The position numbers and the translations under genes were made by a program. The notes below the pieces were generated by a model. It did no database searches. It was not told where the DNA came from and saw only the letters and a list, made by a program, of their open reading frames with translations. Shown here piece by piece: positions 9,169-44,390 of a stretch of DNA of 64,000 nucleotides. Position 1 is the first letter of the stretch. Each line of letters starts with the position of its first letter. The stretch is from Synechococcus sp. JA-2-3B'a(2-13) (GTDB lineage: Bacteria > Cyanobacteriota > Cyanobacteriia > Thermostichales > Thermostichaceae), in assembly GCF_000013225.1 (NCBI RefSeq), contig NC_007776.1:2858501-2922500 (forward strand), written 5' to 3'.

Positions 9169-9759
9169 TCAACGGGGAACAGCAGAGGGCTTGCCTTTGC
9201 GTTGCACATCCTGCATCTGGAAGCCGTGCTTGCGCAGCTCTTGATCCAGCACCAGCTCGTTTTCCACGTGATCCACAAACAACACGCCGTTGAGGTGGTC
9301 GATTTCGTGTTGGATCACCCGCGCCAGCAAATCGTCCGCTCGAAGGGTGCGGGGCCGCCCCGTTTCATCCTTGAACGAAACCACAATCCCTTCTGGGCGC
9401 ATGACCTCGCAGAATACCCCCGGAATGCTCAGGCAACCCTCCTGCCCGGCAACGGCCTCGCCAATGTACTCCCGGATCTCCGGGTTGATCAGCACCAGCG
9501 GTGGCACCTCCGGCTTATCGGGATAAAGATCCACCACAATCATGCGCTTGGGAATGCCAACCTGCGGAGCCGCCAGACCAATCCCATCAAAGCTGTACAT
9601 GGTCTGCAGCATGTCCCGGGCAAGCTGGCGGATCTCGTCGTTGACCTGGCTGATGCGCTTGGCCGGCTGCCGCAGCACCTTGTCCCCCATGCGATAAATG
9701 CGCAGGGGCGGATGCTTCAGCTTCACTTTGGGAACAGCAACAGAAAGGGTAGCCACCAT
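9169..9759 (-). CDS. def: Peptide deformylase
   Basis: 196 residues. All three family motifs are present: GIGLAAPQVG (59-68), EGCLSIPG with the metal-binding Cys at 109, and QHEIDHLNG with metal His 151 and 155 and catalytic Glu 152. The enzyme removes the formyl group from nascent proteins, using an Fe2+-type metal. The N-terminal extension before PPLRIYRMGDKVLR is about 17 residues, common in cyanobacteria. Convergent with the coiled-coil gene; its upstream neighbour on the same strand is the DUF3593 gene, about 140 bases away. Confidence 0.95.
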   Translation of the reverse strand: MVATLSVAVPKVKLKHPPLRIYRMGDKVLRQPAKRISQVNDEIRQLARDMLQTMYSFDGIGLAAPQVGIPKRMIVVDLYPDKPEVPPLVLINPEIREYIGEAVAGQEGCLSIPGVFCEVMRPEGIVVSFKDETGRPRTLRADDLLARVIQHEIDHLNGVLFVDHVENELVLDQELRKHGFQMQDVQRKGKPSAVPR

Positions 9760-9901: not shown

Positions 9902-10216
9902 TCATGGCTCAGGGTTGCCGTCGCCAGCCTCTGGAAGTCGTTGGGCCTGTTGGTCAATTCCCTGCTTAAAGCCCAAGGCCACCAAAATATTGGAGAGGGT
10001 GAGAAAAGCCTCTGCCCCTCCATGCAAGGGATCCACATTGGCCAGGGAAGTGCCGTAGTGCATCTGAGCGTACAGCCCTGCCGGGATGCTGACGGCCACA
10101 AAAAGCAACAACAGCCAAAATCCAACCAAAGCCAAACGTGGGATCCGGCGCAGCCGCGACAGAAAGAATAAAAAGACCAAGTAAGGGAACAGAGAGAGGG
10201 CAAATAAACTGTTCAT
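9902..10216 (-). CDS. DUF3593 membrane protein
   Basis: 104 residues with three hydrophobic stretches: LFALSLFPYLVFLFFL, ALVGFWLLLLFVAVSIPAGL and the segment around AFLTLSNILVALGF. The block AQMHYGTSLANVDPLHGGAEAFLTLSN is what I know of DUF3593, a family limited to cyanobacteria and plastid-bearing eukaryotes. Function unknown. Its ATG lies three bases after the TAG of the DUF2499 gene, so the two are co-transcribed and probably translated in sequence. Confidence 0.8.
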   Translation of the reverse strand: MNSLFALSLFPYLVFLFFLSRLRRIPRLALVGFWLLLLFVAVSIPAGLYAQMHYGTSLANVDPLHGGAEAFLTLSNILVALGFKQGIDQQAQRLPEAGDGNPEP

Positions 10217-10219
10217 CGC

Positions 10220-10546
10220 CTAGTCGGGATCCCCCTCCTGTGCAGGCTCGTCGGCTCTCTCAGCTCGCCAAATGCGGTAGGCAGCCCAAGCCAAGGTGCA
10301 GTTGCCCAGCAAGGTGAAGCTGGCCTGTGCAGTCACCACCCAGTCTAACTTGGGGTCGTTGTCAAACCAGTGCCAGGTGATCGCGCACATCGCCCCCGAC
10401 AAAGCAGGCAGCATCGCCCAGCTCAAACTTCGCCATTCGGGCTGGCCCACCCGCTCCCCAAATTGCCACACGAGCACAATAGCAGCGATCCACTCCAAGA
10501 CGCTGGCAATGTGAATCCACCAGGTGGGAAGCGAAAGGGCGTGCAT
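10220..10546 (-). CDS. DUF2499 membrane protein
   Basis: 108 residues with three to four membrane helices. MHALSLPTWWIHIASVLEWI at the start and SGAMCAITWHWFDNDP in the middle are typical of DUF2499, found in oxygenic phototrophs, usually beside DUF3593. The role is unknown; the fixed pairing suggests a small membrane complex. Its ATG overlaps the TGA of nblA by one base (TGATG), a classic sign of translational coupling. Confidence 0.85.
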   Translation of the reverse strand: MHALSLPTWWIHIASVLEWIAAIVLVWQFGERVGQPEWRSLSWAMLPALSGAMCAITWHWFDNDPKLDWVVTAQASFTLLGNCTLAWAAYRIWRAERADEPAQEGDPD

Positions 10547-10722
10547 CAGGCGCTGAGGGAATGACGCAGCAGTTGGCGGTAAGTGGCCTCCTGCAACAGC
10601 ATTTGCTTGTGCAGTTTGACCAAAATGTCTTTGGCCTGCTCGGGGCTCATGCGAGAAACCAAGGTCTCGAAAGCCCGCTGGCGAAATTGCTGCTCCAAAG
10701 AAAGCTCTAGCGTTTCATCCAT
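10546..10722 (-). CDS. nblA: Phycobilisome degradation protein NblA
   Basis: 58 residues from the second of two consecutive ATGs (10725 and 10722), behind GAGGTGAT. The sequence MDETLELSLEQQFRQRAF, then MSPEQAKDILVKLHKQML and a final YRQLLRH, is the NblA pattern: a short helical hairpin that dimerises, binds phycobiliprotein and recruits the Clp protease during nutrient starvation. Length fits the family (about 60). The frame is open 30 codons upstream, but that stretch is unlike NblA and includes the leader. It overlaps the next gene by one base, making nblA the first gene of an nblA-DUF2499-DUF3593 operon. Confidence 0.85.
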   Translation of the reverse strand: MDETLELSLEQQFRQRAFETLVSRMSPEQAKDILVKLHKQMLLQEATYRQLLRHSLSA

Positions 10723-10803
10723 CATTATCACCTCAGGGTGCTCAGGTAGAGAGGTCTGCAAAGAGTTCCAACAGCGCAGATCTGGCCAGGTAGTGCAAGC
10801 AGG

Positions 10804-10832
10804 ATAATACATATCTTAACAAATCGCAACAA
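10804..10832 (-). promoter_or_regulatory. Likely sigma-70 promoter of the nblA operon
   Basis: Read on the minus strand: TTGTTG, 17 bases, TATTAT. The start point would fall near 10797, giving a leader of about 75 bases. No GTA-N8-TAC NtcA site is visible around it. Confidence 0.55.
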
Positions 10833-11099
10833 CGTGACAAGATGCCGGATCTCGACGTGCCGGAAGGGAGCTTGGCCGAGGCGAGGGCAGAGGCATTCAA
10901 CCCAATGGCAGAAAAAGTACAGGCCCGTCAAGTTTGACGAAAGCGCATTTTGGATGGGGAAGGGGGAAGATTTTCCGGCAGGGATCCCTTTACATCCCGT
11001 CATGTTCGGCGATTCGGCAGGGCTCCATGATAGAAGTGAAGTACTCTGGAGCTTTGTTGCCACCCTTGCTGATTGGTGACTTACTTTGCTTGAATTGCC

Positions 11100-11351
11100 A
11101 TGACCATTTTTGTGGGGAACCTAAACTATAAAGCCTCAACAGAAGAACTGAAAGCTTTCTTCCAGCAGAGGTGGAACGTTAAGTCGGTTACAATCCCGAT
11201 AGACCGAGAGACAGGTCAGACACGAGGCTTCGCGTTTGTGGATCTGGCAACCGAAGCTGAGGAGGACGAAGCCATCGAGAGCGCGAACGGGCAGGAATTC
11301 ATGGGCCGGCCTCTGCGTTTGGATCGAGCCAGGCCCCGCCGCCAAGCCTAA
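11100..11351 (+). CDS. RRM-type RNA-binding protein (cyanobacterial Rbp)
   Basis: 83 residues: one RNA-recognition motif covering almost the whole protein, with RNP2 IFVGNL at 3-8 and RNP1 RGFAFVDL near 42-49, then a short basic tail (RLDRARPRRQA). Cyanobacterial Rbp proteins are single-RRM, glycine-poor or glycine-tailed, often cold- or stress-induced, and bind single-stranded RNA. This one lacks the glycine-rich tail. The ~275-base upstream region holds no other gene. Confidence 0.9.
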   Translation: MTIFVGNLNYKASTEELKAFFQQRWNVKSVTIPIDRETGQTRGFAFVDLATEAEEDEAIESANGQEFMGRPLRLDRARPRRQA

Positions 11352-44361: not shown

Positions 44362-44390
44362 AAGGGATCCCGGCTGGGGATCCCCTTTTG
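44362..44390 (+). terminator. Terminator of gifB
   Basis: AAGGGATCCC-GGCT-GGGGATCCCC followed by TTTT. Confidence 0.75.

What the first reader, a model, noticed from the sequence alone, without database searches (positions are those of the whole stretch)
9902..10832. nblA heads an operon with two uncharacterised photosynthesis-linked membrane proteins
nblA and DUF2499 overlap as TGATG, and DUF3593 starts three bases after DUF2499. Coupling ties DUF2499 and DUF3593 to phycobilisome breakdown. They might anchor NblA or the protease at the membrane, or handle released pigment.
Basis: partly seen in the sequence, partly recalled or inferred. Interest (0 to 1): 0.5.

Follow-up and report, generated by a model that had tools for sequence, protein, structure and literature searches.

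The report
nblA joined to a photosystem-I-linked gene pair
In one family of cyanobacteria the only gene for dismantling the light-harvesting antenna heads a pair of unstudied membrane-protein genes that elsewhere come and go with photosystem I rather than with the antenna, which gives this widespread unstudied pair a testable role.

Summary
On the minus strand nblA overlaps DUF2499 as TGATG, and DUF3593 starts three bases later. The arrangement is not unique to the strain: 8 of 8 genomes of the window's family have it, with a TGATG/TAATG overlap in 6 of 6 of its genus. It is lineage-specific: the one sister-family genome lacks it, and in a phylum sample 0 of 94 other genomes with DUF2499 and a listed nblA have the two within 20 kb.

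A general role of the pair in phycobilisome breakdown is not supported. All 36 of 138 sampled cyanobacteria without an NblA hit keep DUF2499 (Ycf49) and DUF3593. In 23 of 23 picocyanobacteria-like genomes examined the pair precedes psaK. Two tiny genomes with psaA/psaB but no full-length CP43/CP47 gene and no NblA keep both; four without intact psaA/psaB have neither intact. Best reading: an uncharacterised two-part membrane module for building or maintaining photosystem I, which in this family probably shares a message with the sole nblA. The photosystem I role is inferred from gene content and order, not shown.

The parts
10546..10725 (-). nblA (58-59 aa; start ATG at 10722, conserved in the genus, or at 10725)
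   Evidence: PF04485 E 7e-20; end-to-end match to solved NblA 1ojh, E 5.6e-16; single copy in this genome
10727..10734 (-). Shine-Dalgarno sequence GAGGTGAT of nblA
   Evidence: sequence; match of at least 5 bases in 8 of 8 family genomes
10813..10840 (-). candidate sigma-70-type promoter TTGTCA-16-TAAGAT upstream of nblA
   Evidence: consensus scan (1 found, 1.0 expected by chance); the TTAAGAT block is conserved in 6 of 6 genomes of the genus, but in one of them (L063) a 14-base insertion changes the spacing
10544..10548 (-). TGATG stop/start overlap of nblA and DUF2499
   Evidence: sequence; TGATG or TAATG in 6 of 6 genomes of the genus
10220..10546 (-). DUF2499 / Ycf49 gene (108 aa, predicted three long helices)
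   Evidence: PF10693 E 2e-39; model pLDDT mostly above 90 in this half
9902..10216 (-). DUF3593 gene (104 aa, predicted three helices)
   Evidence: PF12159 E 3e-38; models
9169..9759 (-). def, peptide deformylase, downstream on the same strand; follows DUF3593 also in the sister-family genome G291
   Evidence: PF01327 E 7e-52; neighbours
11100..11351 (+). RRM-type RNA-binding protein, divergent neighbour upstream of nblA (context, not part of the operon)
   Evidence: PF00076 E 2.4e-18; found in this place in 6 of 8 family loci

Best explanation
DUF2499 (Ycf49) and DUF3593 are the two small membrane subunits of one module (usually adjacent, often overlapping by 4 bases, fused in a diatom) that serves the making or upkeep of photosystem I, probably assembly or delivery of one of its cofactors. 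In the window's family the last remaining nblA came to lie directly in front of this old pair, and in the window's genus it is fused to it translationally (stop/start overlap, no ribosome site of its own for DUF2499). There the sole NblA and the module are therefore probably made from one message: NblA removes phycobilisomes in the usual way, and the module acts on its own, on photosystem I, not on the phycobilisome. Shown here: gene identities, order, overlap, distribution, co-loss with psaA/psaB, psaK neighbourhood. Inferred: one transcript, translational coupling, complex of the two proteins, and the photosystem I function.
For: (1) Pair: DUF3593 within 1 kb downstream of DUF2499 on the same strand in 104 of 134 genomes (one of the 104, G266, is a broken pair); 4-base overlap in 32 of 64 selected loci; both domains in one diatom protein (passage of PMC3478156). 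(2) Not tied to NblA: both genes present in 36 of 36 class genomes without an NblA hit (the 36 by subtraction, 20 of them listed); nblA within 20 kb of DUF2499 in 1 of 95. (3) Tied to photosystem I: of 49 genomes tested for PsaA/PsaB, both genes are intact in 43 of 45 with psaA/psaB and in 0 of 4 without intact psaA/psaB (Fisher p 7e-5, not corrected for kinship). (4) Not tied to photosystem II: G300 and G301 keep psaA/psaB and both genes, still adjacent, but have no full-length CP43/CP47 gene and no NblA. (5) psaK directly downstream on the same strand in 23 of 23 genomes examined of family f20, 11 genera; ycf49 lies between petL and ycf4 in cyanidiophyte and eustigmatophyte plastids (passage of PMC4603697). 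(6) The order in the window's family is old and conserved.
Against: The four genomes without psaA/psaB are of one genus, so the losses may be one or few events, and other photosynthesis genes went with them. Chlorophyll, phylloquinone, carotenoid and cytochrome b6f genes were not tested, so the module could serve one of those. One genome with psaA/psaB, CP43/CP47, phycobilisome genes and nblA (G087, 100 contigs) shows neither gene, and G205 shows DUF3593 only; assembly gaps or real exceptions. psaK is beside the pair in one family only: 0 of 37 ten-kb loci from other families and 0 of 1 window stretch (one psaK query, may miss divergent psaK). In 30 of 134 genomes the pair is split. The joint AlphaFold2 model has pTM 0.53, so no interface is shown, and no solved structure matches. 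No expression data were seen.
Confidence: 0.5

Rival explanations
1. The pair handles a pigment or cofactor (chlorophyll, phylloquinone, carotenoid) or the cytochrome b6f / electron-transport chain rather than photosystem I assembly as such; it follows photosystem I because these systems are lost together.
For: Invariant polar and aromatic residues in 50-row alignments: W9 H12 E18 W19 T57 W58 H59 D62 N63 Q74 N82 in DUF2499, P11 Y12 D62 H65 G66 E69 in DUF3593, as expected for cofactor binding or catalysis; ycf49 beside petL and ycf4 in some plastids.
Against: psaK neighbourhood in 23 of 23 f20 genomes examined. A passage of PMC11070190 says diazoplasts keep thylakoids and oxidative phosphorylation on them, while the genomes of that kind here lost the pair, which speaks against a role in the respiratory chain; not against a chlorophyll or phylloquinone role. 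T57 is not kept in G300/G301.
Confidence: 0.25
2. One reading: the pair takes part in NblA-driven phycobilisome breakdown, as membrane anchor or by handling released pigment.
For: Conserved overlap with the sole nblA throughout the genus and adjacency throughout the family.
Against: 36 of 36 genomes without an NblA hit keep the pair; 18 of 35 f20 genomes have only 1-2 phycobiliprotein genes and keep it; 94 of 95 genomes with DUF2499 and a listed nblA show no neighbourhood within 20 kb (contig breaks allowed for only where both lie on one contig).
Confidence: 0.07
3. Pure hitch-hiking: nblA landed in front of a housekeeping cluster (DUF2499-DUF3593-def, also present without nblA in the sister family) and the overlap is compaction without regulatory meaning; DUF2499 has its own promoter inside or before nblA.
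For: The sister-family genome G291 has DUF2499-DUF3593-def without nblA and three nblA genes elsewhere; no conserved NtcA-type site GTAN8TAC before nblA in the family.
Against: Kept in 8 of 8 family genomes of three genera while the only nblA; DUF2499 has a Shine-Dalgarno match of 5 or more bases in 1 of 8. Fourfold-site identity in nblA is 0.65 against 0.58 and 0.62 in the two followers, so no clear sign of an internal promoter.
Confidence: 0.18

Closest known systems
NblA, phycobilisome degradation adaptor (PF04485; solved structure 1ojh)
   Same: Length, PF04485 match, alignment over residues 1-55 of 1ojh without gaps
   Different: Only copy in the genome and first gene of a three-gene unit with a stop/start overlap; in 94 of 95 sampled genomes nblA is not near DUF2499. 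Below the cut-off of the narrower NCBIfam model NF045916 (19.9 of 100 bits)
Ycf49 / DUF2499 (PF10693), plastid and nuclear-encoded in algae and plants
   Same: Full-length family match; same family as plastid ycf49 by the papers' own naming
   Different: Function undescribed in the passages seen; here coupled to nblA rather than to petL/ycf4 or psaK
DUF3593 (PF12159)
   Same: Full-length family match
   Different: Function undescribed; fused to DUF2499 in Thalassiosira pseudonana (passage), separate here
Photosystem I assembly factors such as Ycf3, Ycf4, Ycf37/PYG7 (recalled, and named in a passage of PMC6015050)
   Same: Photosynthesis-linked, widely conserved, small; genomic neighbour of photosystem I genes in some lineages
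   Different: No sequence relation looked for or shown; no mutant evidence for DUF2499/DUF3593

Membership tests
NblA (PF04485) | Pfam gathering score | tested here: met
   70.1-71.7 bits, cut-off 25
NblA (PF04485) | end-to-end match to a solved NblA | tested here: met
   1ojh, E 5.6e-16, residues 1-55. L51 kept and K53 replaced by R53; that these residues matter for phycobiliprotein binding is recalled, from no call
NblA equivalog of NCBIfam (NF045916) | curated cut-off of 100 bits | tested here: not met
   19.9 bits; not filed under this narrower model
NblA (PF04485) | binds phycobiliprotein and ClpC and triggers bleaching | not testable with these tools
   needs protein and mutant work
DUF2499 / Ycf49 (PF10693) | Pfam gathering score over the whole model | tested here: met
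   134.2 bits, cut-off 22.1, positions 1-88 of 89
DUF3593 (PF12159) | Pfam gathering score over the whole model | tested here: met
   130.1 bits, cut-off 25, positions 2-87 of 88
Photosystem I biogenesis factor (functional class) | present wherever photosystem I is | tested here: inconclusive
   both genes in 43 of 45 genomes with psaA/psaB; G087 neither, G205 only DUF3593
Photosystem I biogenesis factor (functional class) | lost when photosystem I is lost | tested here: met
   0 of 4 genomes without intact psaA/psaB keep either gene intact; one genus only
Photosystem I biogenesis factor (functional class) | kept when photosystem II is lost but photosystem I stays | tested here: met
   2 of 2 genomes, G300 and G301; photosystem II judged by PF00421 only
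Photosystem I biogenesis factor (functional class) | mutant loses photosystem I | not testable with these tools
   no mutant data seen
Photosystem I biogenesis factor (functional class) | membrane protein with known fold | tested here: inconclusive
   all-helical models, mean pLDDT 86.4 and 83.5; no PDB match at E 0.001 or better

The most novel reading that the evidence does not exclude
DUF2499 and DUF3593 form a two-subunit photosystem-I-specific biogenesis factor, undescribed so far, carried from cyanobacteria into plastids and fused in diatoms; and in the window's family it is expressed from one coupled message with the only NblA, so that each round of antenna removal also supplies the photosystem I module, setting the ratio of antenna to photosystem I in one stroke.
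Probability: 0.2. Interest if true: 0.7.

Novelty: new variant of a known kind. Interest (0 to 1): 0.5.

Why it matters
Ycf49 and DUF3593 are near-universal in photosynthetic cyanobacteria (133 and 134 of 138 sampled genomes with copies free of internal stops, a few of them partial) and reach plants and diatoms, yet no function was found in the passages seen. Gene loss in two kinds of reduced genomes and a conserved psaK neighbourhood turn 'photosynthesis-linked' into a sharper, testable claim: photosystem I, not photosystem II or phycobilisomes. The nblA fusion is a lineage-specific arrangement in which expression of the pair under nitrogen starvation can be tested directly.

Tried and rejected
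Rejected: nblA linkage as a general rule (1 of 95). Rejected: nblA start at 10812. Looked for and not found: a conserved exact NtcA box GTAN8TAC within 400 bases before nblA in 8 family genomes (only one-mismatch sites at shifting places); a phage relative of this NblA (tblastn, E 0.01, no match); sequence relatives of DUF2499 or DUF3593 in the PDB (only weak matches, best E 0.0097 to a designed protein); fold relatives (Foldseek best E 0.91 for the joint model and 0.91 for DUF3593 alone; VIA-align best Z 9.5 to vinculin-like bundles, which its note puts within the common range for helical bundles). DUF2499 against DUF3593 profiles: probability 10.6, a weak hint of kinship in the last helix, not used. 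Neighbourhoods in 41 stretches of up to 10 kb: besides the pair, the commonest neighbour is a polysaccharide-pyruvyl-transferase-like gene in 15, divergent from DUF2499 in 10 of the 11 where my ORF caller also placed DUF2499; no function drawn. That ORF caller missed DUF2499 in 11 of 41 stretches where it should lie; the later phmmer scan found it in all 41.

Literature: searches for DUF2499 (3 papers), DUF3593 (1), ycf49 (8), At4g22830 (2), sll0608/Ycf49-like and two other locus names (10) are listings; passages only were seen of PMC3999925, PMC4603697, PMC3478156, PMC6015050 (its 'ycf49' are reference marks after Ycf4), PMC9385824, PMC13358223, PMC4448311, PMC10053587, PMC4477158, PMC2897979, PMC12903740, PMC11070190, PMC4804200. 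PMC3750441 and PMC8438445 hold the word ycf49 and were not opened. So 'no function described' covers those searches only. In one soybean chlorosis study the YCF49-like gene is one of six candidates in a mapped interval, its change marked as outside a major domain (passage); not evidence for function.

Data handling: coordinates for one search were copied by hand. Left out of that count: broken DUF3593 copies of G147 and G181, second fragments of G111 and G181, the out-of-class hit G224, the second hit of G266. The NblA table was cut at 150 rows (97 genomes), so weaker NblA copies were not placed. Non-matching genomes beyond 20 per call are not listed; class totals (138) and the 36 without NblA are by subtraction. 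35 f20 genomes are in the sample; 23 were examined for psaK. Loci are the best-scoring ones, not random. Named loci L109, L110, L111 give the same hits as G295, G297, G293 and are not counted again.

Full report
What is there. The minus strand of 9902-10725 holds nblA, DUF2499 and DUF3593 in that order, each confirmed by Pfam. The nblA stop and the DUF2499 start share one base; three bases (GCG) part the DUF2499 stop from the DUF3593 start, in frame. def follows at 9169-9759 on the same strand; an RRM protein gene at 11100 runs the other way. The window lies in a single-contig genome of 3,046,682 bases; from memory this is the size of Synechococcus sp. JA-2-3B'a(2-13), which a passage of PMC10053587 places in the Thermostichaceae. 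No call names the genome.

How far the arrangement reaches. The order (as the tool groups genomes) holds 9 genomes; 8 are of the window's family, of three genera. All 8 have nblA-DUF2499-DUF3593 on one strand and one nblA each. In the window's genus 6 of 6 have TGATG or TAATG; the other two genera have gaps of 5 and 113 bases. G291, the one genome of the sister family, has DUF2499-DUF3593-def without nblA and three nblA genes elsewhere. In a phylum sample, 95 genomes have DUF2499 and a listed nblA; the two are within 20 kb in one, the window's own. In G109 an nblA lies about 4.8 kb from DUF3593, not adjacent. The simplest story is that nblA came to lie in front of an existing DUF2499-DUF3593-def row in the ancestor of this family and the other nblA copies were lost.

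Expression. nblA has a Shine-Dalgarno match of at least 5 bases in 8 of 8 family genomes, DUF2499 in 1 of 8, which with the overlap suggests that ribosomes reach DUF2499 through nblA. A TTAAGAT block upstream is conserved in 6 of 6 genomes of the genus, but the promoter scan as such is no better than chance, and one genome has a 14-base insertion between the two boxes. No exact NtcA box was found. No expression data were seen.

What the pair follows. DUF2499 hits occur in 134 of 138 genomes of the window's class, 133 without internal stops; DUF3593 in 137 of 138, 134 without internal stops (in G111 it is in two pieces about 3 kb apart, in G054 the match is partial). Outside the class there is none for DUF2499 and one sub-threshold, stop-ridden hit for DUF3593 (G224). 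NblA hits occur in 102 of 138 (a few are broken or weak). All 36 without an NblA hit keep both genes. Of 35 genomes of family f20, 18 have only 1-2 phycobiliprotein genes and 17 have 9-13, and all 35 keep the pair: these look like Prochlorococcus and marine Synechococcus by size and gene content, a label of mine.

Photosystem I. Of 45 genomes tested first, psaA/psaB are free of stops in 42 (one, G257, in pieces at contig ends); G147 has none and G181 and G266 have broken pieces. These three carry no DUF2499 or a broken one, and a broken DUF3593. A search of the family of G143 added G331 (2.5 Mb), with no psaA/psaB, DUF2499 or DUF3593, and G300/G301 (1.5 and 1.4 Mb), with intact psaA, psaB, DUF2499 and DUF3593, the last two adjacent. 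G300 and G301 have no NblA and no full-length CP43/CP47: G301 shows a 347-aa frame matching parts of PF00421, like the accessory antenna frames also seen in other genomes, and G300 a broken piece. By size, family and gene content G300/G301 look like UCYN-A and the other four like diatom diazoplasts; passages of PMC11070190 say that UCYN-A kept photosystem I and lost photosystem II and that diazoplasts lost photosynthesis. Taken together, both genes are intact in 43 of 45 genomes with psaA/psaB and in 0 of 4 without (Fisher p 7e-5, kinship ignored). The exceptions are G087, with photosystem I, CP43/CP47, phycobilisome and NblA hits but neither gene, and G205, with DUF3593 only; both are fragmented assemblies.

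Neighbours. In 23 of 23 f20 genomes examined, of 11 genera, psaK (PF01241) follows DUF3593 directly on the same strand. In 37 ten-kb or shorter loci of other families none was found with the same query. Plastid ycf49 lies in petL-ycf49-ycf4 in cyanidiophytes and eustigmatophytes (passage of PMC4603697).

The proteins. Alignments of 50 rows each show invariant His, Glu, Asp, Asn, Gln and Trp residues in helices of both proteins, which suggests a bound cofactor or active site. AlphaFold2 gives three long helices in each. The joint chain has pTM 0.53, so the interface is not established. No solved relative by sequence or fold.

Mechanism I commit to. The pair is a thylakoid-membrane module of photosystem I biogenesis or cofactor supply (0.5); in this family it is made together with the sole NblA. 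The steps from gene order to one transcript, from co-loss to function, and from adjacency and fusion to a complex are inferences. The closest rival is a chlorophyll, phylloquinone, carotenoid or b6f role that follows photosystem I (0.25).

Novelty. The gene families are known by number; the arrangement with nblA and the photosystem I link were not seen in print in the searches. I rate the finding a new variant of a known kind, interest 0.5, mainly for the photosystem I link that came out of the check.

Noticed in passing
window, 94 sites, e.g. 10226-10233, 10981-10988, 44364-44371: The palindrome GGGATCCC occurs 94 times in the window against 3.0 expected (GGATCC 217 against 25), while the HIP1 octamer GCGATCGC occurs 3 times against 1.1: a lineage-specific counterpart of HIP1.
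   Followed up: partly
L140, L141, L150, L163-L182: DUF2499-DUF3593-psaK on one strand in 23 of 23 picocyanobacteria-like genomes examined.
   Followed up: yes
G087 (no locus); G205: G087 has photosystem I, CP43/CP47, phycobilisome and NblA hits but no hit for DUF2499 or DUF3593; G205 lacks DUF2499 only.
   Followed up: no
G060 C23 and C9; G333 C1:1034231 and C1:7498816: G060 has two copies of the DUF2499-DUF3593 pair; G333 has a second, partial DUF2499 with a stop inside.
   Followed up: no
G111 C71:25380-28532: DUF3593 in two pieces about 3 kb apart on one strand, as if split by an insertion.
   Followed up: no
L113 (JAAUUT010000071.1): A contig labelled Candidatus Gracilibacteria SU_1_2 encodes a cyanobacterial DUF2499 with 61% identity, probably a misplaced contig in that metagenome bin.
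   Followed up: no
A2 against A3; DUF2499 residues 62-105, DUF3593 residues 56-99: Weak profile similarity between the last helices of the two proteins (probability 10.6), perhaps an old duplication.
   Followed up: no
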